A model generated the notes under the pieces. The model had not been told where the DNA came from and did not search any database. It was given only the letters and a program-made list of their open reading frames with translations. DNA of 64,000 bases from Candidatus Blautia faecipullorum (GTDB taxonomy: Bacteria > Bacillota > Clostridia > Lachnospirales > Lachnospiraceae), in contig DXEG01000001.1 in assembly GCA_019115125.1 (NCBI GenBank), forward strand, positions 1 to 64,000, given 5' to 3'. This document shows positions 20,798 to 44,854 of this stretch, in pieces (the stretch's first letter is position 1; each line of letters begins with the position of its first letter). Made by a program: the position numbers and the translations under genes.

Positions 20798-20850
20798 TTA
20801 CAATATTAGAGTTAAAACTACAATACTGCAGGTGCAAAATATGATAAGTT
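20798..20850 (+). promoter_or_regulatory. Glycoside-regulon operator and promoter 1 (GH2 operon)
   Basis: Half-sites TTACAAT (20798) and CTACAATAC (20818) are 20 bp apart, measured from ACAA to ACAA. An extended -10 (TG at 20842-20843, TAAGTT at 20845-20850) lies exactly 22 bases from the second ACAA. There is no good -35 match. The same layout occurs at 29671-29723, 31091-31143, 33937-33989 and 35588-35640. Confidence 0.8.
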
Positions 20851-20895
20851 TTATTAAATAATAATAGCATACATATTGTCTGATAGGAGGTCACA

Positions 20896-23418
20896 ATGAA
20901 TAAAGTATCACTAAATCAAGACTGGCTGTTTGTCAATGGAACCATAACAATGATGGAACTCTTTACTGGAGGAGAAGAAAAGATTCAGCATATCGATCTT
21001 CCGCATGATGCCATGATATACAGAGATCGGACTCCAGATACGGCGAACGCGCACCAGACTGGATTTTATCCCGGAGGAGAGTATACATATCTGAAAAAAT
21101 GGAACATTCCAGAATCATGGAGGGACAAAAAGATCGTACTCGAATTTGAGGGAATTGCTGACACATGCCGGATCTACTGCAACGGAGATCTGGTGGCAGA
21201 AAATTACAATCCATATACAAGTGTATTTGTGGATGTGACCAGATACTTAAAATGGGGACAGGAAAATGAATTGAAAGCAGAAGTATGCAGTGTGGAGCGG
21301 TCCAGCCGATGGTACAGCGGAGCAGGTCTGTATCGACCTGTATATGCCTGGGTGGGCGGCCCGGCATATATTCCGGCACAAGGAGTACATATTTGTACAG
21401 AGGAGGCAACTTCCGAGATTGCCGCGGTAGAGATTGAGTTTCCGATTTGCAGCCATACCTTGTTTTCCGGCAAGATTCAGGCGATCATCTCCTTGGTTGG
21501 TCCTGACGGTAATACAGCTGCAAGGGAACAGATGTCTGTGACAGTTTATGGTGAAGATACACAGCGCTGTTATCAGAGGCTGGTGGTAGAACAACCGAAT
21601 TTGTGGAGCGATGAAGAGCCGAATCTGTATACATGCAAAATTGAACTTTACGAGGGAGAGAAAATACTGGACTGTTTCAGTCAGCCAGTGGGACTGCGTA
21701 CGATCAGGATCAATGCAAAACAGGGGCTTATGCTCAATGGAAAGGAAGTAAAACTGAGGGGAACCTGTATCCATCATGACAATGGTATTATCGGAGCAGC
21801 AGCTTTCCCAGATGCAGAATATCGTCGATGCAGGCAGATGAAAGAAGCAGGATTCAACGCTCTGAGAAGCTCCCATCATCCGATGGGGAAAGCAATGTTG
21901 GATGTTTGTGACCGTCTGGGGATGCTGGTGCTGGATGAATTGAGTGATATGTGGACGAGAACAAAAAATCAGCATGATTATGCCAACCATTTTCCGATAG
22001 TCTGGAAACAAGACGTAAAGAATATGGTTGAGAAGGATTGGAACCATCCGTGTGTGATCATGTATTCCACAGGGAATGAAATACCAGAAGCCGGTACGGC
22101 CAGAGGCGCCGAATGGAACCGCAGGATCAATGCGGAGATCAAGAGATTGGATCCCACGAGATATACTACGAGCGGAATAAACGGTCTTATGGCTGGGACA
22201 GACAGAATGATGGAAATTATGTGTCAGGCTTCAGGCATGACGCCGGAAGAGCTGACAGCGATGCAGATGGCGGATGGAGCGGAACAGGCAGATGCAGACG
22301 GGCAGAATCAGGCTGGGGCGGATGAAGTGAATGGAATGGCAGCAGTGATAGAAGGTCCATTAGCTGATGCAATCGCCACAAGTCCGATTCTGGAAGAGAT
22401 GATCGGAGAATTTGCTGATGCAACGGATGTTGCAGGATACAACTACCTGACAGCATTACATGAGGAGGATCATCGGAGACATCCGAATCGTGTCGTACTG
22501 GGAACAGAGACGTTCCCGGCGGATATCGTGCGGCTGTGGGATATCGTCCAGCACAATCACCATGTGCTGGGAGATTTTACGTGGACCGGATATGATTATC
22601 TGGGCGAAGCTGGATGCGGGGTCTTCCACTATGACGGCGGCGTGAACTTTTCAGCCCATTGGCCAGACAGACTGGCCGGAATCGGGGATATTGATATTCT
22701 TGGAGACAGAAAGCCGATCAGTTATCTCAGACAGGCCGTGTTCGGAATCGGGCACGATCCGGCAATCGGAGTTATGAGGATGGATAAGGATTGGAAGAAT
22801 GTCGTAAGGACCCCGTGGATGTGGAAGGATAATGTGGCAAGCTGGACATGGCAAGGATATGAAGGACAGACGGCAAGTGTGGACGTCTATGCCAATGCAG
22901 ATGAGATCGAGCTGTTTTTAAACGAGGAGAGTCTTGGCCGAAAAGATTTGGCCGGCGGATATATCGCAGTCTACGAAATTCCCTACTGTCCGGGAAAACT
23001 GGAGGCTGTAAGTTATGTAAACGGCGCTGCCGTCGGGAATACGATGCTCCAGACTGCCGGAGAAGCTGTAAAACTGTTGGCAGAAACCAGTCGCACGAAG
23101 CTTCCGGCGGATGGGGAAAGCCTTGCTTTTGTAAAAATCCGTCTGGCTGATCAGGATGGCAATATCAATAGGCAGGAGAGAAAGACAGTCTCTGTAAAGA
23201 CCGATGGCAATGTTGTTTTACAAGGATTTGGAAGTGCAGATCCGAGCTGTGAGGGCAGTTATCAGAGCGATACATGGCAAACTTATGATGGAACATTGAT
23301 GGCGGTGATAAAAGCAGGGAAAACTTCTGGAGAAGCAAAAGTCACTTTTACAGCGGATGGATGCACCCCGGTGACCGTGAAACTGCAAATTGGGGAGCAT
23401 ATCTGTCATGAGAGATAA
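20896..23418 (+). CDS. Glycoside hydrolase family 2 (beta-galactosidase-like)
   Basis: Intracellular retaining glycosidase of 840 residues. It begins with a GH2 sugar-binding jelly-roll (WYSGAGLYRPV near residue 139), then the immunoglobulin-like domain and the TIM barrel. The acid/base is Glu395 in STGNEIPE and the likely nucleophile is Glu538 in LGTETFP. C-terminal beta-sandwich domains resemble those of GH2 proteins with DUF4982-like tails. No signal peptide. Between the two catalytic residues lies a low-complexity stretch rich in Ala, Asp, Gln and Gly (about residues 457-482). It heads an operon with GH43 genes; exact sugar specificity (beta-galactose is likeliest) cannot be fixed. AGGAGG precedes the ATG. 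Confidence 0.9.
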   Translation: MNKVSLNQDWLFVNGTITMMELFTGGEEKIQHIDLPHDAMIYRDRTPDTANAHQTGFYPGGEYTYLKKWNIPESWRDKKIVLEFEGIADTCRIYCNGDLVAENYNPYTSVFVDVTRYLKWGQENELKAEVCSVERSSRWYSGAGLYRPVYAWVGGPAYIPAQGVHICTEEATSEIAAVEIEFPICSHTLFSGKIQAIISLVGPDGNTAAREQMSVTVYGEDTQRCYQRLVVEQPNLWSDEEPNLYTCKIELYEGEKILDCFSQPVGLRTIRINAKQGLMLNGKEVKLRGTCIHHDNGIIGAAAFPDAEYRRCRQMKEAGFNALRSSHHPMGKAMLDVCDRLGMLVLDELSDMWTRTKNQHDYANHFPIVWKQDVKNMVEKDWNHPCVIMYSTGNEIPEAGTARGAEWNRRINAEIKRLDPTRYTTSGINGLMAGTDRMMEIMCQASGMTPEELTAMQMADGAEQADADGQNQAGADEVNGMAAVIEGPLADAIATSPILEEMIGEFADATDVAGYNYLTALHEEDHRRHPNRVVLGTETFPADIVRLWDIVQHNHHVLGDFTWTGYDYLGEAGCGVFHYDGGVNFSAHWPDRLAGIGDIDILGDRKPISYLRQAVFGIGHDPAIGVMRMDKDWKNVVRTPWMWKDNVASWTWQGYEGQTASVDVYANADEIELFLNEESLGRKDLAGGYIAVYEIPYCPGKLEAVSYVNGAAVGNTMLQTAGEAVKLLAETSRTKLPADGESLAFVKIRLADQDGNINRQERKTVSVKTDGNVVLQGFGSADPSCEGSYQSDTWQTYDGTLMAVIKAGKTSGEAKVTFTADGCTPVTVKLQIGEHICHER

Positions 23419-23465
23419 AATATTTACCAGTGTTGCAGTTCCGCATTTCCAAAGGAGGATAAAGA

Positions 23466-24914
23466 ATGATGGAATACATAAACAAAAGGAATCCGATTCT
23501 TCCGCTTAAATATCATGTCCCGGACGGGGAGGCGCATATGATGCCGGATGGCAGGCTGTATGTGTACGGCAGCTATGACGCTCTGGATATGACGTACTGC
23601 AGCCAGAAGTATCATGTTGTATCTACAGGAGATATGGAGCATTGGACAGTTCATGGCGACGTGGCTTTCCATGCGCAGGACGTCCCGTGGATGGGGGATC
23701 CGCAGGCAAAGCGCTATCCGGGAATCGACTGGACTCATCCGACTCCGTTCCTGCAGAAGATGATAGATGCCATGCCGGAGGAGGTAAAGACTGCGGCTGT
23801 TGAAGCGCAAAAAGCAGAGGCGTCAAAAGCACAGGAAGGAGATGGAGCAGAATGTGAAACTCAGACTGCGGCAGCGCAAATGACGGATGGCTTTATGCAG
23901 GACAGAAAACAGGAGCTTCTTTTCGCGCCGGACTGCCTATACAGGAATGGGAAATACTATCTGTATTTCTGCATGTCTGACGACAGCGAAGGCGTGGCGG
24001 TGTCCGACAGACCGGAAGGCCCGTTTAAAAATCCTGTTCAGCTTCCGTGCGGAGGGATCGATCCTGCGGTATTCATTGATGATGATGGGCAGGCGTATTA
24101 TTACTGGGGGCAGGTATTCGCCCATGGCGTGAAACTCAATGATGATATGGTGTCGTTTAATGAAAATGAAATCGTGGATGACATTGTGACAGAAGAAGAA
24201 CACTGTTTTCACGAGGGATCTTCCATGCGTAAAATCGGTGACACTTATTACTATGTGTATGCGGATATGGAGCGGGGAAAGCCCACTTCATTAGGATATT
24301 CTACTGGAAAGAATCCTTTGGGTCCGTTTACATACAGAGGTATTATCATCGACAATGACGGATGCGATCCGCAGAGCTGGAATAATCACGGTTCCATTGA
24401 GTGTGTGGATGGACAGTGGTATGTATTCTATCACCGCTGCAGCAGAGGAACTCAGCAGTATAGAAGGCTGTGCGTTGAGAAGATCACGGTCAATCCTGAC
24501 GGTACGATAGATGAAGTGAAGATGACTTCTCAGGGAATCGGCGATCCGTTCGCGCCGGGAGAAAAGATCATGGGATATCAGGCGTGCGGACTGAAAGGAA
24601 ACTGCTGTATTGATGTTGACAATGATTACGGATATGAGGAAAAACTGACCAGGATATCAGATGGGGACGAAGCGGTGTTCCGCTATGTAAAAAGTGAAGC
24701 GGCATGGAAAGGGATTGAGATTACATGTACCGGCGGCGGAGTGGTCTCTGTATTTTTGAATGGGGAAAAGGCAGGAGAAGTACATGCTTCATGTGAGAAA
24801 GGAACTATTCAGACAATGAGCGCGCCGATCAACATGGACGCGGGAGAGTATGAGCTTCTGCTGAGATTTGAAAAGCCGGAGGAGCTGGAAGTGCTTTCAG
24901 TTACATTATTTTAA
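23466..24914 (+). CDS. Glycoside hydrolase family 43 with C-terminal beta-sandwich
   Basis: Family 43 five-bladed propeller enzyme of 482 residues; the family removes alpha-L-arabinofuranose, beta-xylose or beta-galactose units. Candidate catalytic acids are Asp in YHVPDGEAHM (base), Asp in GGIDPAVF, and Glu in CFHEGSSM (acid). A CBM6-like sandwich follows at about 375-482. No signal peptide. A low-complexity Ala/Glu/Gln stretch lies at about 105-145, between blades. The gene follows the GH2 gene by 47 bp with AAAGGAGG, and is part of the same operon. The first or second ATG (23466 or 23469) could be used. Confidence 0.9.
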   Translation: MMEYINKRNPILPLKYHVPDGEAHMMPDGRLYVYGSYDALDMTYCSQKYHVVSTGDMEHWTVHGDVAFHAQDVPWMGDPQAKRYPGIDWTHPTPFLQKMIDAMPEEVKTAAVEAQKAEASKAQEGDGAECETQTAAAQMTDGFMQDRKQELLFAPDCLYRNGKYYLYFCMSDDSEGVAVSDRPEGPFKNPVQLPCGGIDPAVFIDDDGQAYYYWGQVFAHGVKLNDDMVSFNENEIVDDIVTEEEHCFHEGSSMRKIGDTYYYVYADMERGKPTSLGYSTGKNPLGPFTYRGIIIDNDGCDPQSWNNHGSIECVDGQWYVFYHRCSRGTQQYRRLCVEKITVNPDGTIDEVKMTSQGIGDPFAPGEKIMGYQACGLKGNCCIDVDNDYGYEEKLTRISDGDEAVFRYVKSEAAWKGIEITCTGGGVVSVFLNGEKAGEVHASCEKGTIQTMSAPINMDAGEYELLLRFEKPEELEVLSVTLF

Positions 24915-24936
24915 GTTTGAGAAAGGAGTAACCTAA

Positions 24937-25664
24937 ATGGACAAGAAAAAAATATTTCCGGATGATTTTTTTATGGGGAGCTGCCAGTTCGGCAGTACAG
25001 ATAGAGGGAGCGTGGGATGCAGATGGAAAAACACCGAGCATCTGGGATACCATGCCGGCAGAGAAAATAAAAAGAGGAGAAAACTGCCATGTCGCGTGCG
25101 ACCATTATCACAGGTGGAAAGAAGATGTGGCGATCATGAAAAAACTTGGTTTAAAAGCGTACAGATTTTCTATCAGCTGGCCGCGGGTGATCCCGGAACA
25201 CGGCAAAGTCAATAAAAAGGGGCTTAAGTTCTACATTGATCTTGTCAACCAACTGCTGGAAGCGGGAATTGAACCAATGGTAACACTGTTCCATGCTGAT
25301 ATGCCGGTCAGAGAAAAGGCAATGTATTATTTCGCGAAATTTACATGGGAGAGATACGGGCTTCCTGTTCTGTTTACGGAAAATGGTTTTGCCAATATTG
25401 ATTTTGTCATGCTTAACGGGCGGGTGGGGGATCCGCAGAGAGCAGATTATATCCATCGGTATCTTGGGGAGGTAAAACATGCGCTCGAAGAGGGAATTCC
25501 GGTGATCGGATATTTATACTGGTCTTTATTGGACAACTTTGAATGGTTCCACGGATACGATATGCGGTTTGGGCTGGTTCATGTATCAGACGCAGAAGCG
25601 GACAATCAAGGATTCCGCATATTATTACGCAGAAATAATAAAAGCAAATGGAGCGATTATATAA
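24937..25664 (+). pseudogene. Broken GH1 beta-glycosidase gene (frameshifts plus internal deletion)
   Basis: Remnant of a family 1 beta-glycosidase. It starts KKKIFPDDFF, then a run of seven Ts at 24965-24971 shifts the frame; removing one T gives the family start FLWGAASSAVQIEG. Homology continues through YRFSISWPRVIP to LFHADMP, then jumps to KAMYYFAKFTWERYGLPV and the nucleophile motif TENG. About 230 residues are missing, including the NEP acid/base motif. Near 25595 the frame shifts again, and the natural tail DSAYYYAEIIKANGAII ends at a TAA at 25662-25664. It therefore cannot encode an active GH1. In the shifted frame the remnant reads straight into the next gene, but that gene has its own AGGAGG and ATG. 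Confidence 0.88.
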
Positions 25665-25687
25665 ATTTGCAGGAGGATTATAGAGAT

Positions 25688-26761
25688 ATGAGCAATAGTA
25701 TGAAGAACAACAGAATTTACCCGGGACAGACGATGAGAGATGAAAACGGGAACCGGATTCAGGCGCACGGCGCGGGGATGATCTATGACAATGGAACTTA
25801 TTACTGGTATGGTGAGAATAAAGAGTGTACCACGGGGAAGGACGATATCTGGACATGGGGGATCCGATTCTATTCCTCAAAGGATCTGGTCAACTGGAAA
25901 GAAGAGGGGCTGGTGATTCCGCCTGATACGGAGAATCCGGACTCCAGCCTGCATCCCTCAAAGCATGTGGACCGTCCTCATATCCTGTACAACAGGAAAA
26001 CAGAGAAGTATGTATGCTGGCTGAAGCTCAGTGAGGAGGAAGGCTATTTCGTGATCCTGAGTTCTGCGGACTTGCTGGGGCCGTACAGCATAGAGAAAGA
26101 CCACTACCGCCCGTTCGGAGTGTCGGTCGGTGACTTTGACCTCTGGCAGGATGAGGAGGGGAATGGATTCCTGTATTTTGAACACGATCACGCCGGGGTG
26201 ATCGCAACAGGTCTGACTGATGACTTTCTGGATGTTCAGGGAGAGTATCTGGATATGTTCACCGGGCTAAAGCCGCCGTATACGAGAGAGGCATGTACGC
26301 ATTTTGTCTATAAAGGCAGGCATTATCTGCTGACAAGCGGCATGATTGGGTATATCCCGAATCCAAGCGAAATTGCGGTGAGCGACAATCCTCTGGGATC
26401 GTATGAGGTGCTGGGAAACCCGCATATTGACGATGAGAGCAGCGCGTCCTTTAACAGCCAGATATCCTGCGTTTTTCAGGATCCTGCCCGACCGGGGGTT
26501 TATCTGGTGATGGCAGACCGGTGGGTGCCGGATTACGTCATGACAAAGGAACGTTATGAAAGGCTGGAACGGGTGATCACTTCACAGAGTAATCCGGACG
26601 TTCATCCCACAGAGGAGGATTATAAAGAAGCCATGAACGCACCATTTCTCGGAAACGCGAACACGTCCATTGCGGAATATGTATGGCTGCCGCTTAAGCT
26701 GGACGGGGAATACCCTGTGATCGAGTGGAAAGATGAATGGAGCGCTGAGGATTGGGAATAG
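25688..26761 (+). CDS. Glycoside hydrolase family 43-like protein
   Basis: A 357-residue propeller protein of the GH43 or closely related superfamily. Features are IQAHGAGMIYDNGTYYWYGE (blade one), DRPHILYN and GDFDLWQDEEG (the second acidic position), and YTREACTHFVYKGRHYLLTS (the region of the acid Glu). No signal peptide. The start at 25688 follows AGGAGG at 25671-25676 and separates it from the GH1 remnant, although the frame is open upstream. It is the last gene of the GH2 operon, before a bidirectional terminator. A galactan- or arabinan-directed activity is plausible but unproven. Confidence 0.85.
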   Translation: MSNSMKNNRIYPGQTMRDENGNRIQAHGAGMIYDNGTYYWYGENKECTTGKDDIWTWGIRFYSSKDLVNWKEEGLVIPPDTENPDSSLHPSKHVDRPHILYNRKTEKYVCWLKLSEEEGYFVILSSADLLGPYSIEKDHYRPFGVSVGDFDLWQDEEGNGFLYFEHDHAGVIATGLTDDFLDVQGEYLDMFTGLKPPYTREACTHFVYKGRHYLLTSGMIGYIPNPSEIAVSDNPLGSYEVLGNPHIDDESSASFNSQISCVFQDPARPGVYLVMADRWVPDYVMTKERYERLERVITSQSNPDVHPTEEDYKEAMNAPFLGNANTSIAEYVWLPLKLDGEYPVIEWKDEWSAEDWE

Positions 26762-26787
26762 ACCAGTAAGACGAGTCTTGAAATTAT

Positions 26788-26829
26788 AACAACGCCGGTG
26801 TGTGGATTCCATACATCGGCGTTGTTCTT
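26788..26829. terminator. Bidirectional terminator between GH43 and GH78
   Basis: AACAACGCCG (26788-26797) pairs with CGGCGTTGTT (26817-26826), with the inner part also pairing through G-T wobbles. Convergent genes flank it. Confidence 0.75.
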
Positions 26830-26866
26830 TGAAGTAAATTGAAGTTTGTTTGAAGTAAATCAAAGA

Positions 26867-29626
26867 TCAAAATACCGCCTCAACCTCAAATTCTCCATTT
26901 CCGATTTCTTTGATGCTTCCATCCGGCAGTCTGATCTCAGCAGACGTATTCGCCGGTATTTTGCCAAAGATGCGTATTTTGTCTATATCTTTCTCCCATC
27001 TCAGCTCAATGGCGCCGTGGGGACAGTGATAGCTGCCCTCCGCCCATTCAAATGGACAGCTGTACTCCGGCGTGATGAGGATCTTGTCATAGCCTGTCCC
27101 GGCATTGTTGAGACCGAGTACTCTGCGGTAGAGGAAATCACCTACACAGCCGAAGGCATAATGGTTAAAGGAGCAGTTTGCCAGTTCACCGTCGGGGCGC
27201 ACAGCGTCCCAGTTCTCCCAGACTGTTGTAGCGCCGTTCTTTATTTCATACAGCCATGAGGGACATTCCTCCTGAAGAAGCACTTTCCACGCGGTACCCT
27301 GATATCCGTACTGGCACAGAATATCCAAAAGATGAGGTGTTGCCATGAACCCGGTATCCAGACGGAAGCCGTTTCCTTCGACCAGCTCATTCAGCCGTTT
27401 TGCCAGCAGCGGTTCTTTCTCAAGAGACACCATATGGTGCTTCAATGCCAAAATGTAGTTTCCCTGCATTTCCTGCTCCAGCCTGCCGTCGTCGGAGACA
27501 TATTCTTCCTCAAATGCCTGCCGGACTCTCTTTGCGTAGGTACGGTATTTCTTCGCGTTTTCCTGATATCCAAGCAGCTCGGAGATCTCTGCGTACATAT
27601 CGGCATTTGCAGCGAGGAGACTGCTTCCCACGCAGTGCATGGTAAGAAATGCCGATGCAGGGCCGTCTGTAAATCCCTGTTCATTGACGACACTGGGGAT
27701 AATCCAGTCGCCGAAGTGGAATCCGGTGTTGATCAGGTAATGCATATTTTCAAGCCGGCGTTCATCTGTAGGAAGTTCCGGTATGGAACCCATGGTATTT
27801 GCGGGAGACGGAAGTTCGTCGGCTGCCTGTACCATTGCCTCCATCCATTTGCTCATGGCTTCATAGTTCGCCGCCAGAACATCCTTGTCTCCGCGCAGTT
27901 TGTAGAGCTGTAAAGGAAGCGTCATGATGACGTCGCCCCAGCCAAGGGAGCCGCCGGAATCCTGCATGATATAGCTGCGGATCTGCGGGACAGTCCCCAG
28001 AATATGTCCGTCTTCTCTCTGTTCCGTACGGATACTTTTTAGCCAGTCCTCATAGAAAGCGGTCATGTCCTGATTAAAAAGGGCGGTTGCGCCGTAGACT
28101 ACCACATCGCCTGTCCAGCCTGCCTTCTCACGGGTAGGGCAGTCGGTGGGGATGGTGATATTATTGGAGCGCTGGCTCCAGTAAATATTGCTCTGGAGCT
28201 GGTTGAATTGCGCGTCGGAGCAGCGGAAGCTTCCGGTCACCTCATTGTCCGTGCTGACAGCAAGGGCGGTAAAGTCTTCTTTTTTCCAGTCTGTGCCGCC
28301 GGTCACGCGGACATAACGGAAGCCGTGGTATGTAAAGTGAGGCTCAAATACCTCAAAGTCGTTCCCGCCGCAGATATAAGTATCTTTTTGTTCGATATTC
28401 GTACCCGAGAATATGTAGAAATAATTGCCGTCCTTGTCGAGCTGTTCTCCGTGCTCAAAGGTGATCTTCGTCCCTTTTGGCTCGCGAATCTGCACGCGGA
28501 TGACTCCGGCAAGATTCTGTCCGAAATCAACGATCGTATCACCGTTGGGCGCAGTCAGGATCTCCAGAGCAGGTACTTCTTTGAAGACCCGGGCAAGAGG
28601 ACTGATCTGCGCTTCCAGTGTATTGTCCGGAGCGTCTTTTACCTGCACAGGAAGCCATCTGCTGTCATCGTAAGAAGAAAGAGAAGGATCGCCGTCTGCC
28701 ATCTGTGCATCGTACACTTCTCCAAGGAAGAGATCGGCTGTGCGTACTGGACCGTCAAAGGAATATTTCCAGTTTCCGTCTGTGGCAATGATCTGTTTCT
28801 GACCGTCCGGCGCCGTCAGCTCAAGCTGGAGGAGCAGCCCCGGTACTTCGCCGTACTCGCAGCCACGGCCTACCGCGATCTTGCCCTTATACCAGCCGTC
28901 CGCGACTGTGGCGGAGATGGCGTTCGCGCTGCCGCAGATCAGGTCGTTTACATTATATACCTGATATTTCAGACGCTTATCATAAGTTGTAAATCCCGGG
29001 TTGAGCAGGGCGTCTGTGACCGGTCTGCCGTTGATCTTTACTTCATACAGGCCGTGCGCCGTCACATACAGGCGCGCTTTGGATACGGGGACTTCTGAGA
29101 TGAATGTGCGTCTCATCTGCACAGCGGGATCGTAAGGCTCCAGCGGGAGCGAATGGAGAATGTCTCCGTCCGAGCCCACCTCTGACGACTCGCCCCGCAT
29201 CATGGCTTCCAGGGATTCCGCCCACTGCTTCTTTGCGGTGATCAGCGGATTGACCTCAAGCTGAGGCAGCGGATCAGGCTCGATCCAATGGGCGCGCCAG
29301 TCAGTGAGATCAAAGAAAGCCGTCTCGAAAGCGTATGTATCGCTCTTAATCTCTGCCCCGGTGTCCGTCCGGACAGATACGCTATATGTATAGGAAGAAG
29401 CGGACTTAAGTTCTTTTCCCTCGTATGGGATTCCGGTGGAGTCAGAGCTGTTTCGGATGCCGCTGTCCCACATCAGACTGCTGTCTTTATCCTTGACGAT
29501 GATCTGATATGCAGTCTGAAATACATTATTATCTTTGGTTGCGATCTCCCAGGAAAAGCGCGGATGTTTACAGTCCAGAGAGATCGGGTGATGTGAAAAT
29601 TCGCAGGTTACATTTTGAATGACCAT
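26867..29626 (-). CDS. Alpha-L-rhamnosidase, family GH78 (copy 1)
   Basis: Releases terminal alpha-L-rhamnose. The 919-residue protein has the GH78 order of beta domains followed by an (alpha/alpha)6 barrel and a C-terminal sandwich. The conserved TIPTDCPTREKAGWTGD motif near residue 500 carries the candidate catalytic acid; it is one residue shorter than the RDERLGWTGD form in copy 2. ARLYVTAHGLYEVKINGR marks the N-terminal domain. No signal peptide. It is transcribed opposite to the GH2 operon from the regulon promoter at 29671-29723. It ends without the helical tail found on copy 2. Confidence 0.93.
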   Translation of the reverse strand: MVIQNVTCEFSHHPISLDCKHPRFSWEIATKDNNVFQTAYQIIVKDKDSSLMWDSGIRNSSDSTGIPYEGKELKSASSYTYSVSVRTDTGAEIKSDTYAFETAFFDLTDWRAHWIEPDPLPQLEVNPLITAKKQWAESLEAMMRGESSEVGSDGDILHSLPLEPYDPAVQMRRTFISEVPVSKARLYVTAHGLYEVKINGRPVTDALLNPGFTTYDKRLKYQVYNVNDLICGSANAISATVADGWYKGKIAVGRGCEYGEVPGLLLQLELTAPDGQKQIIATDGNWKYSFDGPVRTADLFLGEVYDAQMADGDPSLSSYDDSRWLPVQVKDAPDNTLEAQISPLARVFKEVPALEILTAPNGDTIVDFGQNLAGVIRVQIREPKGTKITFEHGEQLDKDGNYFYIFSGTNIEQKDTYICGGNDFEVFEPHFTYHGFRYVRVTGGTDWKKEDFTALAVSTDNEVTGSFRCSDAQFNQLQSNIYWSQRSNNITIPTDCPTREKAGWTGDVVVYGATALFNQDMTAFYEDWLKSIRTEQREDGHILGTVPQIRSYIMQDSGGSLGWGDVIMTLPLQLYKLRGDKDVLAANYEAMSKWMEAMVQAADELPSPANTMGSIPELPTDERRLENMHYLINTGFHFGDWIIPSVVNEQGFTDGPASAFLTMHCVGSSLLAANADMYAEISELLGYQENAKKYRTYAKRVRQAFEEEYVSDDGRLEQEMQGNYILALKHHMVSLEKEPLLAKRLNELVEGNGFRLDTGFMATPHLLDILCQYGYQGTAWKVLLQEECPSWLYEIKNGATTVWENWDAVRPDGELANCSFNHYAFGCVGDFLYRRVLGLNNAGTGYDKILITPEYSCPFEWAEGSYHCPHGAIELRWEKDIDKIRIFGKIPANTSAEIRLPDGSIKEIGNGEFEVEAVF

Positions 29627-29670
29627 GAAAGATACCTCCTCTGTTTTGATGATAGTTGTATACTGACGTT

Positions 29671-29723
29671 ATTTTAACAGGAGAATCAGAATAAATATTG
29701 TAGATATGACTTTTAAATTGTAA
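29671..29723 (-). promoter_or_regulatory. Glycoside-regulon operator and promoter 2 (GH78 copy 1)
   Basis: Read on the minus strand, half-sites TTTACAATT and TCTACAATA are 20 bp apart (ACAA starting at 29721 and 29701). The extended -10 (TG at 29679-29678, TAAAAT at 29676-29671) lies exactly 22 bases from the second ACAA. The GH78 start is 45 bp further on. Confidence 0.8.
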
Positions 29724-29728
29724 ATATG

Positions 29729-29771
29729 CTCTCTCTTTGCAAGGACACACATGTGTTTTTGTAAAGAGAGG
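29729..29771 (-). terminator. Hairpin after the AraC-type regulator
   Basis: CTCTCTTT (29731-29738) pairs with AAAGAGAG (29763-29770). There is no clear T tract on the minus strand, so termination may be weak. Confidence 0.4.
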
Positions 29772-29785
29772 GCAGGATAGATGTG

Positions 29786-30982
29786 CTATATTTTGTGCGT
29801 ATTATTACGGTACTGGAGCGGTGTGACTCCGTATTTTTTCTTAAATACATTCTGAAAATAAGACTGGCTGGAGAAGCAGAGGTAATTGCTGATCTCACTG
29901 AGTGACTTGTTAGAATAAGTCAGGAGGCTTTTGGCCTCTTCCAGCCGACATCGCATAATAAAGCTGCTTACGTCAAAACCCAGCTCCTTTTTGAACTTCC
30001 CGGTCAGGTAGGATCGGCTTCTGCCAATATGCTCCGCTACGTCTCCCACCTGGATCGGTTCGTTGACATGATGGGTGATAAATTGGATACATTGGAAAAT
30101 TTCAGGGGACATCCCTTGCGGGATCTTGTTCTGCGCAACACGTTCTGTAAAGTCGATGAGCATGGTATAATTCAGCGTAGAGATATGGGCGATGTCCTGT
30201 GAGCGTTCACACTCCTGAATATAGATATCAGAGAGCATATAAGCCTGTTCCATGTCCATGCCGCCTGCGATGGCGCTTCTTGTGACAATGGCGGCTGTGG
30301 AGATGAAAAGATTCTTCTCCTGCCGCAGAGAATTGTCAGCCATAATTCCCCCGGAGAGGTCAGCGGTTGTTTTGAGCAGTTGTTTTAAGCTTTTCAGGTC
30401 ACCGTTCTGGATATACTGGGAGAGCTGACGCTCAAATTCGTATGTATTGTGGAAACGCTGTGTTTCCTTAGCGTTGATAACCTGATCAGAATGCAGATTG
30501 GAAAATTCATGGATAGCGCTTGTATTATCAAGCCCGAAGTGCTGTCCGATGTTAATTTGCTCATCATTGAGGCACAGATGAAGATAGGCGACCATATGGA
30601 GGAACTGGTCAAAAGACAGCAGGGGGATATGGGATAGGAAATGTGTGATCGTCTCTTTATGCTCCCCATTGATGGCCCACTCCAGCATAAAAGAGTGGAT
30701 CGCCTGACCTGACACGGGTGTGCTGAAAACAGGACCTATCGTGATTCCGCTTTCCATGCTTTTTACGTTAATGTAGCCGAAATAACCGAATGACTGTGAG
30801 ATAAAGTAATCGGGATTTTTGTTAAGGTGTATTATATCCGAAGGGATGCTTTTGTAAAGCGCTTTATCTCCGGGAACAGTGGGATATGAGGTTATGTCTC
30901 CGGTGGGATAGTGGCAGCAGCTTACAGGAATAGCTGTTGAAAGATAAAATAAACGGCAGAATGCTTTCAGATCTGTGATCAT
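29786..30982 (-). CDS. AraC-family transcriptional regulator of the glycoside locus
   Basis: A 398-residue regulator. The C-terminal hundred residues hold two helix-turn-helix motifs of the AraC/XylS type (VGDVAEHIGRSRSYLTGKF and LSEISNYLCFSSQSYFQNVF) ending in GVTPLQYR. The N-terminal 290 residues show no obvious catalytic motif and probably bind the inducer. The ATG at 30982 is chosen because GGGAGG precedes it; an in-frame ATG at 31027 lacks such a site. The gene is central to the locus and diverges from GH78 copy 2. It is the natural candidate to bind the five 20-bp-spaced half-site pairs, which is an inference. Confidence 0.92.
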   Translation of the reverse strand: MITDLKAFCRLFYLSTAIPVSCCHYPTGDITSYPTVPGDKALYKSIPSDIIHLNKNPDYFISQSFGYFGYINVKSMESGITIGPVFSTPVSGQAIHSFMLEWAINGEHKETITHFLSHIPLLSFDQFLHMVAYLHLCLNDEQINIGQHFGLDNTSAIHEFSNLHSDQVINAKETQRFHNTYEFERQLSQYIQNGDLKSLKQLLKTTADLSGGIMADNSLRQEKNLFISTAAIVTRSAIAGGMDMEQAYMLSDIYIQECERSQDIAHISTLNYTMLIDFTERVAQNKIPQGMSPEIFQCIQFITHHVNEPIQVGDVAEHIGRSRSYLTGKFKKELGFDVSSFIMRCRLEEAKSLLTYSNKSLSEISNYLCFSSQSYFQNVFKKKYGVTPLQYRNNTHKI

Positions 30983-31053
30983 TACAGTCCTCCCTTGCGG
31001 TAAAAAAAGTTTCGGGTATGATATCATAATTTATAATCAACGTCTTTTTAATC

Positions 31054-31082
31054 ATTATAAGAAGTTTTTCTGACTGAATCAA
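31054..31082 (-). promoter_or_regulatory. Promoter of the AraC-type gene
   Basis: On the minus strand, TTGATT (31082-31077) and TATAAT (31059-31054) have a 17-bp spacer. It has its own -35 box, unlike the five target promoters, and lies back to back with the operator at 31091-31143. Confidence 0.75.
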
Positions 31083-31090
31083 GAATAAAA

Positions 31091-31143
31091 TTACAACTTT
31101 AAAGTCAAAATCACAATACAAAGGACGGTTTATCTGATATTCT
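31091..31143 (+). promoter_or_regulatory. Glycoside-regulon operator and promoter 3 (GH78 copy 2)
   Basis: Half-sites TTACAAC (31091) and TCACAATAC (31111) are 20 bp apart. The extended -10 has TG at 31135-31136 and TATTCT at 31138-31143, 22 bases from the second ACAA. Confidence 0.8.
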
Positions 31144-31174
31144 ATCAACAGAAAACGTTAGGAGGATAAAGGGT

Positions 31175-33928
31175 ATGATTTATGATTTCAGGATCGAATA
31201 TAGAGAAAATCCGCTGGGAATCGACAGAAAGCCGCGTTTCTCGTGGAAGCTTGAAAGCGGTGAACAGAATGTGGTGCAGACACATTACCAGATCCAGGTG
31301 ATCAGCGAGGGAAAGCTTGTGTGGGACAGCGGCCGCGTGAAGAGCAGTCAGTCCGTGCTTGTGCCTTGTCTGGGCGCGGAGCTGAAACCGTTCACATCCT
31401 ATCAGGTGCAGGTGAGCGTGTGGGATAACTACGGGAATCTGGGGCAGGCGTCGGGCAGCTTTGAGACGGGAGTTATGAGTGAAGAGAACCTGAATGCAAA
31501 GTGGGTCACTCATACACTTCCGGAAGAGGAGACGGCGTGCCCGGTGTTCGTGAAGTGTTTTTCGGCGGAGAAACCGGTGAAGAAAGCCAGATTGTACGTC
31601 ACGGCGTGCGGCGTGTATGAAGCGCAGGTTAACGGAAGGAAAGTGGGTGACTGCTTTTTGGCGCCGGGCTGGACGTCCTACCACAACCGTATCCAGTATC
31701 AGACCTATGACATTACAGAGCTTTTGGATGGGGAAAATGAAATCGCCATCACAGTGGGAAACGGCTGGTATAAAGGGGAGCTGGGATTTGACGCAAAACC
31801 CGATAATTACGGAGACAGAACGGCGCTCCTTGCCATGGCGCGGATCGAATATGAGGACGGGGAGACAGATGTTATCGGTACAGATACCGACTGGAGCGTA
31901 GAGACGAGAGAGATCCGTTTCTCCGAGATCTACCACGGCGAGACGCAGGACTTTACGAGCGGTATAATGGAGGTCGGAAACACGGTTCTTTTTGAACAGA
32001 CAGAGCGTATTGGCTGTATCACGGCACAGGAGTCAGAGCCTGTCCGTGTGACAAAACGATTTGAAGTGAAAGAGAAAATCGTGACGCCCAAAGGCGAGGT
32101 AGTCTTTGACTTCGGGCAGAACATGTCAGGACTTGTGGAAGTCAGACTTCCGAAGACAGAAGGAGGCAGACTGGTGATCCGCCATGCGGAGACGCTGGAT
32201 AAAGATGGAAACTTTTACACGGAGAATCTGCGTACCGCGAGATGCACGGATACCTATATCTATGGAGACGAGCAGGTGGGAATGACAGTGATGCCGCATT
32301 TTACATTCCATGGCTTTCGCTATATCTGCGTGGAAGGCGTGGGAACGGATGTGAGCGAACAGTGCTTTACAGCCTGCGCGCTGCATACAGATATGAGGCA
32401 GACCGTCAGCTTCCATACAGATAATAAATTAGTGAACCAGCTTCAGAGCAACATCGAGTGGGGGCAGAGGGGCAATTTCCTTGATATCCCCACGGATTGT
32501 CCGCAGAGAGACGAGCGTCTTGGCTGGACGGGGGATGCGCAGGTATTCTGCGGCACTGCTTCCTATAACTTTGATACGGCATTATTTTTCCGCAAATGGA
32601 TGAGGGATATGGCGGCGGAGACCACAGATGAATGGGGAGTGCCCCATGTAGTTCCGAACATTCTGGGAGATCAGGCGGGAGCCGCGGCGTGGAGCGATGC
32701 GGCGACCATTATACCGTGGACACTCTGGCAGGTGTACGGAGATAAGGAGATACTGGCGGAGCAGTTCCCCATGATGAAGCAGTGGGTGGACTACATTCAT
32801 GCAAGAGTGTCTGACAACGGACTGTGGCAGACAGGATTCCAGTACGGGGACTGGCTGGCACTGGATATTGAGTCCGGAAGTACAGACCGCACGGGAGGAA
32901 CAGACAAGTACTTAGTCGCAAATGCTTATTATGCATATTCCACAAGGATCGTCCGCGACGCGGCAGCGGTTCTGGGATATGAAGACGAGGCAAAAGCCTA
33001 CGGTGAGTTGTATGAACAGATCGTGGATGCGATCAATGTAGAATTTGTCACAAGGAGCGGGCGGCTGGTGAGCGAGACACAGACAGCCTGCGTGCTGATG
33101 CTGCATTTTGGCCTTGTAAAGCTGGAGTTCAGGGAGCGGATCTTAAATACTCTGGAGACAAATATCGGCGCCCATCACAATCATCTGACAACAGGGTTCG
33201 TGGGAACCCCATATTTGTGCCACTGCCTGTCTGAAAACGGGCTGCATGATCTGGCGGACGAGATCTTCATGAAAGAGGATTTTCCCGGATGGTTCTACGC
33301 GGTGAAGAAAGGCGCTACTACGATCTGGGAGAGATGGAATTCTATTCTCCCGAATGGGGATTTCGACGAGTCCGGTATGAACTCCCTGAACCATTATGCA
33401 TACGGTTCGATCGGAAGCTGGCTGTATGAGAAAGCGGCGGGTATCCGTTGTGAGGAGCCGGGGTACAAGAAGATCAGAATCCAGCCTATGCTCACGAAAG
33501 GCCTGACGGAAGCAGATGCCTCTTTTGAATCCGTATACGGGACAATCCGAAGCGCATGGAGCTGTAAGAACGGGAAGATCACAGTGGATGTGCAGATTCC
33601 GGCAAATACGACGGCGGTGATCTGTCTGCCGGAGAAAGAGGAAGAAATCAGCGTCGGCTCAGGCTCTTACCACTATGAATATGAGACAGAGACGAATCTG
33701 GAACTGGATAAATATACGATGGAATCCACTCTGGGCGAGCTTGTGGCAGAAGAACTGGGCAGGCAGCTGTTTGAGCAGATGGTTCCGGGAATGCTTGCCA
33801 ATCCGATGATAAAATTCGCTTATGGAATGACGATTTCCGAACTGATCATCCAGGCGCCGGATGCCAAGCCTTTGTATATGGCAGTTATTGACGCATTGAA
33901 TGAAAAATACAGGAATGAGATGAAATAA
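31175..33928 (+). CDS. Alpha-L-rhamnosidase, family GH78 (copy 2), with helical C-terminal module
   Basis: Intracellular rhamnosidase of 917 residues. The catalytic motif DIPTDCPQRDERLGWTGDAQ near residue 445 is the classical GH78 signature with the acid Glu in RDER. The N-terminal domain shows ARLYVTACGVYEAQVNGR. The (alpha/alpha)6 barrel ends near GATTIWERWNS. After the C-terminal sandwich comes an extra module of about 70 residues (33719-33925), starting STLGELV and ending VIDALNEKY, which resembles the tail of the GH3 gene in this locus and is absent from GH78 copy 1. AGGAGG precedes the ATG. Confidence 0.94.
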   Translation: MIYDFRIEYRENPLGIDRKPRFSWKLESGEQNVVQTHYQIQVISEGKLVWDSGRVKSSQSVLVPCLGAELKPFTSYQVQVSVWDNYGNLGQASGSFETGVMSEENLNAKWVTHTLPEEETACPVFVKCFSAEKPVKKARLYVTACGVYEAQVNGRKVGDCFLAPGWTSYHNRIQYQTYDITELLDGENEIAITVGNGWYKGELGFDAKPDNYGDRTALLAMARIEYEDGETDVIGTDTDWSVETREIRFSEIYHGETQDFTSGIMEVGNTVLFEQTERIGCITAQESEPVRVTKRFEVKEKIVTPKGEVVFDFGQNMSGLVEVRLPKTEGGRLVIRHAETLDKDGNFYTENLRTARCTDTYIYGDEQVGMTVMPHFTFHGFRYICVEGVGTDVSEQCFTACALHTDMRQTVSFHTDNKLVNQLQSNIEWGQRGNFLDIPTDCPQRDERLGWTGDAQVFCGTASYNFDTALFFRKWMRDMAAETTDEWGVPHVVPNILGDQAGAAAWSDAATIIPWTLWQVYGDKEILAEQFPMMKQWVDYIHARVSDNGLWQTGFQYGDWLALDIESGSTDRTGGTDKYLVANAYYAYSTRIVRDAAAVLGYEDEAKAYGELYEQIVDAINVEFVTRSGRLVSETQTACVLMLHFGLVKLEFRERILNTLETNIGAHHNHLTTGFVGTPYLCHCLSENGLHDLADEIFMKEDFPGWFYAVKKGATTIWERWNSILPNGDFDESGMNSLNHYAYGSIGSWLYEKAAGIRCEEPGYKKIRIQPMLTKGLTEADASFESVYGTIRSAWSCKNGKITVDVQIPANTTAVICLPEKEEEISVGSGSYHYEYETETNLELDKYTMESTLGELVAEELGRQLFEQMVPGMLANPMIKFAYGMTISELIIQAPDAKPLYMAVIDALNEKYRNEMK

Positions 33929-33936
33929 AAACAATA

Positions 33937-33989
33937 TTGCAATTATTTGTTCAAAATTACAATACTGAAATGAGTGACTGTGGTAAGTT
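33937..33989 (+). promoter_or_regulatory. Glycoside-regulon operator and promoter 4 (transporter)
   Basis: Half-sites TTGCAAT (33937) and TTACAATAC (33957) are 20 bp apart. TG at 33981-33982 and TAAGTT at 33984-33989 form an extended -10 at the common distance. The region after the second half-site resembles promoter 1 (ACAATACTG and TAAGTTT). Confidence 0.8.
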
Positions 33990-34043
33990 TATACCATCAG
34001 ATCTGAAGCGAAGAGACGAAGAGAAAAGTGAAGGAGGAATATT

Positions 34044-35444
34044 ATGAGTAAGAAACCGTTGGGGAAAGACAAAGACGGCATCCAGAAAGTGATGCGGTTC
34101 GGGGATTATTTTGGAGACGCGGCAGGACAATTCGCGCTGAACGCAATATCCGGTCTGGTCGGACAGCTTACATATTTCTACACAGACAAGGTCGGACTGG
34201 CGGCAGGAGCGGTAGGTACCGCTTTTCTGATCGTAAAGATTTTAGATGCTTTTACTGACCTGATCATGGGATACATTGTAGACCACACAGCACCCGGAAA
34301 AGAGCGTTATCGTCCATGGCTGCTCAGGATGGCGATACCTGCGGCGGCAATGATCATATTGCTGTTTACCGTACCGGCAAGTGTCAGCTCAACTTTGCAG
34401 ATGGTCTATATGTTTATCACGAACTTCCTGCTGACGGCAGTAATCTATACTGCGATTTGTATACCGTACAATTCTCTCATGGTTGTGCGTACGGCGAGCC
34501 AGCAGGAGAGAGGCAACATGGGAACATGGCGCGCAGGTGCCGGATATGTGGCAGGAATGGTGATCGCGGTGGCGATTATCCCGATTACGAATATGCTCGG
34601 CGGCGATCAGGCTGCATGGATCAAATTCAGCGTTGTACTCGCTGTACTTTCGGCACTGTGCCTTCTGCTTACATGGAAGACAAGCAAAGAGACGAATCCG
34701 GTTATGGGTGCAGAGAATGCACAGTCGGATGCAGACGAGGCAATTCCGTTTAAGGATGCGGTTGTGAATCTGTTCCACAATAAATACTGGGTGATGATCC
34801 TGATCATGGGGCTTGCGGCAAATATCACGTACGGTCTTGCGAATTCAGCAGGAACTTATTATGCGAAATGGATCTACGGCAATGACAACCTGGTCGGCAT
34901 CCAGGGCGCGGTTGGCCTGATCCCCACGGTGCTCGGCTTCGCTTTAGTCGGCCCAATGATCAAAAAGCTGGGCGTCACAAAGACCCTGAAAGTATCATTC
35001 TTTATAGGAATGGCAGCAAATATCCTGCGTCTGTTCAACCCGTATGACTTCGTATATAATACAGTACTCGGCTGCTTCAGCACATTTGCCAATATCCCGA
35101 TGATGTGTCTGCTCGGTGTGCTGACAGCAATGGCGATCGATTACAATGAATATAAATTCAACAATCGTATGCTTGCCTCTTCACAGGCGGCGTCCGGATT
35201 CGGAAACAAGGTTGGAAACGGACTTGGCTCATCGCTGGTTGCATGGTGCTTAGCGATCGCGTCATATAATCCGTTGGCAGAAACAGTTACAGGCGGAGTA
35301 AAACAGGCAATCTTCACATTCAATATCTATGTGCCGCTGATCCTGTTCGCGCTCATGTTTGCCATTTCTCTGAAATTTGATCTGGAGAAGAGACTTCCGG
35401 AGATCCACACGGAGATTGCGCAGAGGAAAGCGCAGAATAAGTAA
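34044..35444 (+). CDS. GPH-family sugar:cation symporter
   Basis: Major-facilitator-type symporter of the glycoside-pentoside-hexuronide family, 466 residues with about twelve membrane helices. Family features are FGDYFGDAAGQF in helix one, DAFTDLIMGYIVDHT in the loop after helix two, and a MGTWRAGAGY motif in the middle. It probably imports the oligosaccharide or glycoside handled by the neighbouring cytoplasmic hydrolases, driven by a cation gradient. It has its own regulon promoter and a GGAGG site. It is the only transporter in the locus. Confidence 0.93.
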   Translation: MSKKPLGKDKDGIQKVMRFGDYFGDAAGQFALNAISGLVGQLTYFYTDKVGLAAGAVGTAFLIVKILDAFTDLIMGYIVDHTAPGKERYRPWLLRMAIPAAAMIILLFTVPASVSSTLQMVYMFITNFLLTAVIYTAICIPYNSLMVVRTASQQERGNMGTWRAGAGYVAGMVIAVAIIPITNMLGGDQAAWIKFSVVLAVLSALCLLLTWKTSKETNPVMGAENAQSDADEAIPFKDAVVNLFHNKYWVMILIMGLAANITYGLANSAGTYYAKWIYGNDNLVGIQGAVGLIPTVLGFALVGPMIKKLGVTKTLKVSFFIGMAANILRLFNPYDFVYNTVLGCFSTFANIPMMCLLGVLTAMAIDYNEYKFNNRMLASSQAASGFGNKVGNGLGSSLVAWCLAIASYNPLAETVTGGVKQAIFTFNIYVPLILFALMFAISLKFDLEKRLPEIHTEIAQRKAQNK

Positions 35445-35463
35445 GAAATACAGAGATGCAGAA

Positions 35464-35490
35464 GCAGAGTCCCCATATCAGGGGACTCTG
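35464..35490 (+). terminator. Hairpin after the symporter gene
   Basis: CAGAGTCCCC pairs with GGGGACTCTG across a short loop. The T tail is weak (TTGC), so termination may be partial. Confidence 0.55.
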
Positions 35491-35587
35491 TTGCGTACAT
35501 ATGGATGCCCTCGGTCGATGTTTAACGAAAGCGTGATAATGCATGAGAATATAGGTTACAAACTATGAAAGAAAAACGGATTTAAAA

Positions 35588-35640
35588 TCACAAAATAAAA
35601 AGCAAAATTACAATACAAAAGAAGAGCAGAATGATACTCT
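35588..35640 (+). promoter_or_regulatory. Glycoside-regulon operator and promoter 5 (esterase-GH3)
   Basis: Half-sites TCACAAAAT (35588) and TTACAATAC (35608) are 20 bp apart. TG at 35632-35633 and TACTCT at 35635-35640 form the extended -10 at the common distance. Confidence 0.8.
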
Positions 35641-36677: not shown

Positions 36678-36698
36678 TGAATACGGAGGATTTTGAAA

Positions 36699-39002: not shown

Positions 39003-39060
39003 GGGGCTGACGCAGCTATGATGATGATTTTTATCATAGCTGCGTCAGCCCCATTTTCTT
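39003..39060 (+). terminator. Strong terminator ending the glycoside locus
   Basis: Perfect 20-bp arms at 39003-39022 and 39033-39052, with a 10-base loop, followed by ATTTTCTTT. It may also work for dapF from the other strand. Confidence 0.85.
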
Positions 39061-41883: not shown

Positions 41884-41919
41884 TATTGCTATATTGATTA
41901 GCTATCAGCCTCCTTATAA

Positions 41920-41958
41920 ATTATCGTATAGGGCATATAGCACGCCCTACATGATAAT
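41920..41958 (-). other. Candidate origin of transfer (oriT) for the MobV relaxase
   Basis: An imperfect palindrome with ATTATC (41920-41925) and GATAAT (41953-41958) as outer arms and TAGGGC and GCCCTA as inner arms. Read on the minus strand it contains TAGGGCGTGCTATATGCCC, comparable in layout to the TAGTGTG-TTA nick region of pMV158-type MobV origins. Its position just upstream of the relaxase start supports the call. Confidence 0.5.
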
Positions 41959-41959
41959 T

Positions 41960-43083: not shown

Positions 43084-43085
43084 TG

Positions 43086-43119
43086 CTAAGCCACTGGCAA
43101 GTACGCTAGTGGTTTTTTA
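43086..43119 (+). terminator. Terminator after the Lin1244-like gene
   Basis: CCACT (43091-43095) pairs with AGTGG (43108-43112), followed by six Ts. Confidence 0.75.
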
Positions 43120-43133
43120 GATTTATTAAGAAA

Positions 43134-43175
43134 AAGAGTTCTTTCGGAATCACAGCGTGATTCCGGAAGAGCTCT
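43134..43175 (-). terminator. Terminator of the serine recombinase gene
   Basis: A near-perfect palindrome with GGAATCAC/GTGATTCC in its core and AAGAG/CTCTT outer arms. On the minus strand it is followed by TTTTTC. Confidence 0.8.
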
Positions 43176-43181
43176 TGCGGA

Positions 43182-44714: not shown

Positions 44715-44854
44715 TTTTTGCACCTCGTTAATTGTATTCTAGCACATATAGGCTATATTTACAATTATACATAAGGTTAAAGCCTCTGGATATCGGCATC
44801 ATTTTTGTAAAAGAAATTATCTGGAATCAGAGGCTGACGCGCGGCTTTTCCGGC

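What the first reader, a model, noticed from the sequence alone, without database searches (positions are those of the whole stretch)
20798..35640. Five promoters with an identical operator layout define a glycoside regulon
At 20798, 29723 (minus), 31091, 33937 and 35588 there are two TTACAAT-like half-sites exactly 20 bp apart (ACAA to ACAA). Each is followed by an extended -10 (TG, any base, TANNNT) whose TG starts exactly 22 bases from the second ACAA. None has a good -35. All five lie 30-55 bp upstream of glycosidase, symporter or esterase starts. The AraC-type gene (29786-30982) has its own ordinary promoter. This fits activation by the AraC protein bound as a pair of direct repeats, but binding is inferred.
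Basis: partly seen in the sequence, partly recalled or inferred. Interest (0 to 1): 0.75.

Follow-up and report, generated by a model that had tools for sequence, protein, structure and literature searches.

The report
AraC-type switch for plant-glycoside genes
Five promoters in a gut bacterium carry the same two-part docking site, very probably for the AraC-type regulator encoded beside them, which would switch on genes for importing and trimming plant sugars; the design is of a known kind, though I found no earlier description of this site.

Summary
The exact pattern ACAA-N16-ACAA-N18-TGNTANNNT occurs four times in the window (0.01 expected) and nowhere else in the held 3.5-Mb genome; the fifth site differs by one base. 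A model built from 56 sites of other genomes ranks the five sites first of 16 hits in the whole genome. In 80 loci around relatives of the AraC-type gene, TACAAT pairs are 20 bp apart 32 times, against 0.54 on average per other spacing. Of 62 aligned regulator genes, 53 have a site just upstream, all 53 oriented away from the regulator. In 397 genomes, full-length sites occur in 12, all among the 19 that carry the regulator. Binding, activation and inducer are inferred. The layout is a known AraC-family kind (direct repeats of 21-bp periodicity). What seems new is the motif, the 20-bp spacing, its spread in Lachnospiraceae, and a second paralogous regulator-site set in this genome. Novelty: new member of a known kind.

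The parts
20798..20850 (+). Operator/promoter 1: half-sites TTACAAT 20798-20804 and CTACAAT 20818-20824, TG 20842, -10 TAAGTT 20845-20850; before GH2
   Evidence: PWM 40.9; 27.8 bits
20896..26761 (+). Likely operon: GH2 (20896-23418), GH43 (23466-24914), GH1 remnant fused to GH43 (24962-26761)
   Evidence: 47-nt gaps between the genes
29671..29723 (-). Operator/promoter 2 (minus): TTACAAT 29723-29717, CTACAAT 29703-29697, TG 29679-29678, -10 TAAAAT 29676-29671; before GH78a
   Evidence: 36.9; 24.2 bits
26867..29626 (-). GH78 alpha-L-rhamnosidase a
29786..30982 (-). AraC-type regulator, 398 aa; start at 30982 has a GGGAGG ribosome site (the longest ORF runs to 31027)
31054..31082 (-). Candidate promoter of the AraC gene, TTGATT-17-TATAAT; its -35 edge (31082) is 8 nt from the distal half-site of operator 3
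   Evidence: consensus match only
31091..31143 (+). Operator/promoter 3: TTACAAC 31091-31097, TCACAAT 31111-31117, TG 31135, -10 TATTCT 31138-31143; before GH78b, divergent from the AraC gene
   Evidence: 42.3; 32.4 bits
31175..33928 (+). GH78 alpha-L-rhamnosidase b
33937..33989 (+). Operator/promoter 4: TTGCAAT 33937-33943, TTACAAT 33957-33963, TG 33981, -10 TAAGTT 33984-33989; before the symporter
   Evidence: 43.6; 34.0 bits, best in genome
34044..35444 (+). GPH-family cation symporter
   Evidence: MFS_2; TIGR00792, 248.6 bits against cut-off 231.35
35588..35640 (+). Operator/promoter 5: TCACAAA 35588-35594, TTACAAT 35608-35614, TG 35632, -10 TACTCT 35635-35640; before the esterase
   Evidence: 41.5; 27.2 bits
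35673..38990 (+). Likely operon: BD-FAE-type esterase (35673-36677) and GH3 (36693-38990)
   Evidence: 15-nt gap; terminator-like hairpin at 39004-39051

Best explanation
The five sites are operators of the adjacent AraC-type protein (29786-30982). Two subunits bind the two direct repeats, whose core is about TTACAATA, 20 bp apart. The proximal repeat lies over the missing -35 element (about -37 to -32) and recruits RNA polymerase to an extended -10, so that binding of an unknown sugar or glycoside inducer to the N-terminal part switches on eight genes in five units: two GH78 rhamnosidases, GH2, GH43, a GH1-remnant/GH43 fusion, GH3, an esterase and a GPH symporter. Shown: the sites, their non-random layout, their conservation beside relatives of this regulator and their co-occurrence with it. 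Inferred: binding, dimer geometry, activation, inducer, operon limits, and that the products act on imported rhamnose-bearing plant glycosides.
For:: the exact pattern occurs only at this cluster in the held genome. (80 named loci, window not included): TACAAT direct repeats 20 bp apart 32 times in 26 loci, other spacings up to 60 bp 0.54 on average; given a 20-bp pair, the TG of TGNTANNNT is at offset 22 in 14 of 20; a PWM from those loci gives 151 hits of 16 or more against 1 in reversed sequence; the five window sites score 36.9-43.6, the next window hit 15.8; 148 hits of 20 or more in 73 of 81 sequences (80 loci plus window; the window's five included); downstream genes resemble the window's GPH (45), GH3 (20), GH78b (17), GH2 (15), GH78a (5), GH43 (5), AraC (5), esterase (2), GH1/GH43 (2); 32 matched none or had no ORF found; 53 of 62 regulators with a site, 53 of 53 oriented away; the five sites rank 1-5 of 16 in the genome with a model trained on 56 sites of other genomes; full-length sites in 12 of 19 regulator-bearing and 0 of 378 other genomes (Fisher 1.9e-18); 7 of 14 against 0 of 378 without five genomes whose sites trained the model (1.3e-11); 5 of 12 against 0 of 378 without two more (G412, G174) whose sites are close to training sites (1.1e-8). 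T, A and T of TANNNT kept in 50, 51 and 52 of 53 sites. (PMC8579813, passages): AraC-type tandem sites upstream of mapped starts are read there as activator sites.
Against: No binding or expression data. Many of the 80 loci are near-duplicates, and 8 of the 148 hits are weak reverse-strand echoes of real sites. Eight of 80 loci, 9 of 62 rows and 5 of 28 genome-search loci have no site at the cut-off. Seven of 19 regulator-bearing genomes show no site at E 0.001, though PWM sites stand at the regulator locus in five of those seven. Seven genomes without the regulator have weak truncated hits lacking the -10 part (not followed up). A paralogue with similar sites exists, so which protein binds which site in vivo is open. 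Residue-by-base covariation gave no clear contact map.
Confidence: 0.85

Rival explanations
1. The sites bind the adjacent AraC-type protein, but it mainly represses, or acts differently with and without ligand.
For: The proximal repeat covers the -35 region, where a bound protein could also block polymerase. In one search a second promoter-like match before GH78a (TTAAAA-17-TATCAT, 29677-29649, 9 of 12) overlaps the operator-linked -10.
Against: No -35 match was found for the five -10 elements, so they would be weak without help. The repeats lie upstream of the -10, not over the start, by construction of the motif and in all five window sites. AraC-type tandem sites in such a position are read as activator sites in published work (passages).
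Confidence: 0.07
2. Another regulator, such as the 42%-identical paralogue at G000:C9:106166-107338, binds these sites, alone or together with the adjacent protein.
For: Three weaker sites of similar layout stand at that paralogue's locus before GH3, a GH42-like gene and a GPH symporter. The second recognition helix is nearly identical in both proteins.
Against: The five sites score 24.2-34.0 bits and the paralogue's three 13.6-17.8. Four of the five window sites have AAAA before the proximal core, the paralogue's three have ATTTT. Site and regulator are neighbours in 53 of 62 cases.
Confidence: 0.06
3. The repeats are themselves a sigma-A promoter (TTTACA-16-TACAAT) and not an operator.
For: The consensus scan lists TTTACA-16-TACAAT (29724-29697, 10 of 12) and 9-of-12 matches at 20797 and 35587.
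Against: The position that would be the key A of that -10 is G in 19 of 53 sites. A promoter alone would not be confined to regulator-bearing genomes or need a second -10 at a fixed 22-bp offset.
Confidence: 0.02

Closest known systems
AraC-family rhamnose regulators of Bacillales, Bacteroides and Enterococcus (Rodionova et al. 2013, PMC3870299; passages seen)
   Same: AraC-family protein, direct-repeat operators, rhamnose-related genes
   Different: Repeats there have a 21-bp periodicity and motifs described as unique to each group (not shown in the passages); their genes are for rhamnose catabolism. Here 20 bp and TTACAAT, before glycosidases and a GPH symporter
XylS/Pm (PMC5481539; passages seen)
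   [quoted passage not shown] activation
   Different: Boxes TGCA and GGTA; benzoate-type inducers
AraC-type tandem-site regulons of Caldicellulosiruptor bescii (PMC8579813; passages seen)
   Same: Plant-sugar genes, tandem sites with a large spacer upstream of mapped starts
   Different: The passages name mostly ABC transporters and give no motif letters, so the motifs could not be compared
TIGR04094, AraC-type regulators beside YSIRK surface antigens (PMC7098570 passages)
   Same: Best curated family match (171.6 bits, residues 77-392); regulator gene divergent from its target; paired direct repeats proposed
   Different: Below the family's cut-off of 200; the targets are surface antigens
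Gram-positive polysaccharide utilization loci of Roseburia/E. rectale (PMC5320581; passages seen)
   Same: Glycosidases plus transporter (also GPH) plus AraC-type regulator
   Different: The passages give no operator motif for these loci

Membership tests
AraC/XylS transcription regulators | C-terminal AraC-type DNA-binding domain with two HTH motifs | tested here: met
   PF12833 69.1 bits (cut-off 33.6) and PF00165 59.7 (26.6); 62 of 62 aligned relatives match both at E up to 1; the model matches AraC, MarA and SoxS domains
AraC/XylS transcription regulators | Direct-repeat operator about two helical turns apart next to the core promoter | tested here: met
   20-bp repeats, proximal repeat at the -35 position; binding itself untested
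AraC/XylS transcription regulators | Ligand-dependent binding and activation | not testable with these tools
   needs protein and expression experiments
AraC-family direct repeats of 21-bp periodicity | 21-bp periodicity | tested here: not met
   20 bp at all five window sites; 21 bp by eye beside L158, L163 and L171 and in 4 TACAAT pairs
TIGR04094 (YSIRK-adjacent regulators) | Score above curated cut-off | tested here: not met
   171.6 against 200
RhaS/RhaR equivalogs | Score above curated cut-off | tested here: not met
   RhaS NF010028 46.1 against 288; RhaR NF010025 36.8 against 525
PocR-type sensor domain | PF10114 in the N-terminal part | tested here: inconclusive
   5 of 62 relatives match at E up to 1 (best 3.4e-5); the window protein does not
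Gram-positive polysaccharide utilization locus | Polysaccharide-degrading enzyme, carbohydrate transporter and regulator side by side (as worded in PMC10318527, passage) | tested here: inconclusive
   GH78, GH2, GH43, GH3, GPH and AraC genes present; whether any enzyme acts on a polysaccharide or is secreted was not tested

The most novel reading that the evidence does not exclude
A large Lachnospiraceae family of AraC-type regulators, with up to three members in one genome, uses one shared promoter blueprint (TTACAAT tandem at 20 bp, sometimes 21 bp, plus an extended -10 at a fixed offset) to run separate GPH/glycosidase clusters. The second HTH and the TACAAT core would stay fixed, and specificity would be set by the first HTH (residue 323) and the four bases before the core.
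Probability: 0.4. Interest if true: 0.55.

Novelty: new member of a known kind. Interest (0 to 1): 0.4.

Why it matters
It gives a searchable operator for a regulator family found in common gut Lachnospiraceae (loci titled Blautia, Coprococcus, Faecalicatena, Butyrivibrio) and so lets plant-glycoside regulons be predicted from sequence. Two paralogous regulator-site sets in one genome make a compact test case for how such paralogues avoid cross-talk. The regulator with its promoter is also a candidate inducible expression system for these bacteria (inference).

Tried and rejected
Chance or AT-rich noise: rejected. A plain sigma-A promoter made of the two repeats: rejected (G at the key position in 19 of 53 sites). 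Inverted-repeat reading: no preferred inverted spacing (at most 2 per spacing).

Protein-DNA covariation: mutual information over 53 regulator-site pairs put 28% of the top 100 pairs in the DNA-binding domain, which makes up 22% of the tested pairs, so no contact map. Residue 323 of the first HTH was the best of 100 positions for the TTTT variant before the proximal core (9 of 9 TTTT sites have non-R; 39 of 44 others have R; Fisher 4.5e-7, uncorrected, and the trait was picked after seeing the table). On a tree only 4 changes of each trait and 2 supported independent pairs remain, so it is not significant (which printed these numbers and then ended with an error in the tree drawing). Kept as a lead only.

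Sensor domain: the whole AF2 model was searched, not the N-terminal part alone. Of the 50 matches shown (254 in all), the significant ones are AraC-family proteins, and the best others are sensor domains at E 0.25-0.4, not significant.

Literature: the listings of searches showed no paper that I could recognise as being on this motif or regulator family. Four were complete lists (26: 20 papers; 44: 15; 46: 8; 58: 12); three were capped (25: 20 of 30; 45: 10 of 53; 70: 12 of 126). One search (TTACAAT anywhere) returned 2,839 papers, the 15 listed being unrelated. I saw titles and starts of abstracts, and passages of eight papers (PMC3870299, PMC10318527, PMC5320581, PMC9723621, PMC5481539, PMC7098570, PMC8954004, PMC8579813); no supplements.
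Full report
WHAT WAS CLAIMED AND WHETHER IT IS THERE. Reading the sequence and pattern searches confirm all five at the stated places. Four match ACAA-N16-ACAA-N18-TGNTANNNT exactly; the one at 33937 has GCAA as its distal copy. Shuffled windows give 0.01 exact matches on average. In the held genome (3.5 Mb, 67 contigs, 97% complete) the four are the only exact matches. With one mismatch there are 10 matches, five of them these, against 2 for the pattern read backwards.

THE GENES. The sites precede GH2 (20896), GH78 (29626, minus), GH78 (31175), a GPH-family symporter (34044) and a BD-FAE-type esterase (35673), by 32-55 nt from the end of the -10. Gaps of 47, 47 and 15 nt suggest that GH43 and a GH1-remnant/GH43 fusion follow GH2, and that GH3 follows the esterase, so about eight genes in five units. 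The GH3 resembles NCBIfam's exo-alpha-(1->6)-L-arabinopyranosidase (823 bits, below its cut-off of 1300), while its best solved relatives are named beta-glucosidases, so its substrate is open. The AraC-type gene (29786-30982, start with a GGGAGG ribosome site) is divergent from the second GH78.

RELATIVES OF THE REGULATOR. In 61 genomes (the window's own included), two same-genus genomes carry 70% identical orthologues, and the window's own genome holds a 42% identical paralogue on contig C9. Among 397 genomes of the family, 19, the window's own included, carry a relative at E 1e-55 or better. A scan of named genomes gave 80 loci (212 relatives found, the best 80 kept). Their record titles are mostly Lachnospiraceae and other Clostridia (Blautia luti, Faecalicatena orotica, Coprococcus comes, Butyrivibrio); Streptococcus henryi and one MAG titled Muribaculaceae stand outside. 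The Blautia luti MSK.16.34 contig (L100, 201,952 bases) has the length of contig C62 of G015, a same-genus genome, so the window is probably from the Blautia group; the genome itself is unnamed.

THE SITE TRAVELS WITH THE REGULATOR. In the 80 named loci, counted without the window, TACAAT-TACAAT direct repeats are 20 bp apart 32 times in 26 loci, against 0.54 on average for other spacings up to 60. Inverted pairs show no preference, and given a 20-bp pair the TG lies at offset 22 in 14 of 20 cases. A weight matrix from these loci gives 151 hits of 16 or more against 1 in reversed sequence and scores the five window sites 36.9-43.6, with the next window hit at 15.8. At 20 or more there are 148 hits in 73 of 81 sequences (80 loci and the window, whose five sites are included). 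Eight hits are low-scoring reverse-strand echoes of real sites, and several loci are near-duplicates, so this is not 148 independent cases. Downstream genes resemble the window's GPH symporter (45), GH3 (20), GH78b (17), GH2 (15), GH78a (5), GH43 (5), AraC (5, all echoes), esterase (2) or GH1/GH43 (2); 32 matched none or had no ORF found. Of 62 aligned regulators (the window's included), 53 have a site scoring 20 or more within 450 bp upstream, and all 53 are oriented away from the regulator gene. Of the nine others, three (L158, L163, L171) show by eye the same half-sites at 21 bp. Among 28 genome-search loci of relatives (L016, L031, L032, L041-L065), 23 have a site at 20 or more; 22 loci around more distant AraC-type genes (L017-L030, L033-L040; 79,627 bases) have none, the highest being 18.9.

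GENOME-WIDE TEST. A sequence-only model was built from 56 sites of other genomes. In the window's genome its five best of 16 hits are the five sites, 24.2-34.0 bits. Next come C9:112411 (17.8), C1:2812 (16.9, truncated), C9:107446 (14.4) and C9:103632 (13.6). The three C9 sites lie around the paralogous regulator, before a GPH symporter, a GH42-like gene (weak match, 19.9 bits) and a GH3: probably a second, separate regulon of the same design, although the proximal half of C9:103632 is poor. In 397 family genomes, 19 have a hit at E 0.001. Twelve of these have full-length hits (21 in all), and all twelve are regulator-bearing. The other seven lack the regulator at the cut-off and have only truncated hits of 20.9-22.6 bits that miss the -10. 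Full-length site against regulator: 12 of 19 versus 0 of 378, Fisher 1.9e-18; without five genomes whose sites were in the training set, 7 of 14 versus 0 of 378, 1.3e-11; without two more whose sites are close to training sites, 5 of 12 versus 0 of 378, 1.1e-8. Related genomes are not independent, so these p-values are too small. Seven of the 19 regulator-bearing genomes gave no hit here; five of those seven have a PWM site at the regulator locus.

MECHANISM. The -10 TANNNT is well kept (T, A, T in 50, 51 and 52 of 53 sites; the TG before it is looser, 30 and 32 of 53). Counting from it, the proximal ACAATA lies at about -37 to -32, where a -35 element would be, and no promoter-like match uses the five window -10s. 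That is the geometry of an AraC-type activator sitting on direct repeats beside the polymerase, as described for XylS and as inferred from mapped starts in Caldicellulosiruptor. Four of the five window sites have AAAA before the proximal core, as might be expected if the two HTH motifs read two boxes; I could not assign contacts. A possible promoter of the regulator gene has its -35 edge 8 nt from operator 3, so autoregulation is possible. The N-terminal part has no clear family: a weak PocR-domain match in 5 of 62 relatives, not in the window protein, and no significant fold match beyond AraC-family proteins among the 50 shown. The inducer is unknown; the two GH78 enzymes suggest rhamnose-bearing plant glycosides (inference).

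WHAT IS KNOWN. AraC-family rhamnose regulators with direct repeats of 21-bp periodicity are described for three bacterial groups (PMC3870299, passages), and AraC-type regulators beside GPH symporters and glycosidases are known in gut Firmicutes (PMC5320581, passages). The best curated family match, TIGR04094, is below its cut-off. The listings of searches showed no paper that I could recognise as being on this motif or regulator family, but three lists were capped and only titles and abstract openings were seen. I therefore file it as a new member of a known kind.

VERDICT. It is a solid but conventional regulatory system; its value lies in a precise, testable operator for a widespread gut-bacterial regulator family.

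Noticed in passing
window 24962-26761: A 599-aa ORF joins two parts of a GH1 glucosidase, without the stretch of about 200 aa that lies between them in relatives, to a GH43 domain; the GH1 part is probably inactive (inference). An assembly error cannot be excluded.
   Followed up: partly
G000:C9:103632-112468 (L070): Second AraC-type paralogue (42% identical) with three weaker sites of similar layout before a GH3, a GH42-like gene and a GPH symporter.
   Followed up: partly
L158, L163, L171: Regulators of the same family whose repeats are, by eye, 21 bp apart instead of 20, a natural spacing change.
   Followed up: partly
L125 (Streptococcus henryi): A 45% identical regulator with sites before GH3- and GPH-like genes lies outside Clostridia; possible horizontal transfer.
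   Followed up: no
window 40948-44723: Mob_Pre-type gene and a serine-recombinase-type gene next to hydF, perhaps an integrated mobile element just beyond the glycoside cluster.
   Followed up: no
L201-L207 (G109, G168, G220, G224, G324, G401, G443): Seven genomes without the regulator have truncated matches to the tandem repeats without the -10; they may be sites of other regulators or chance.
   Followed up: no
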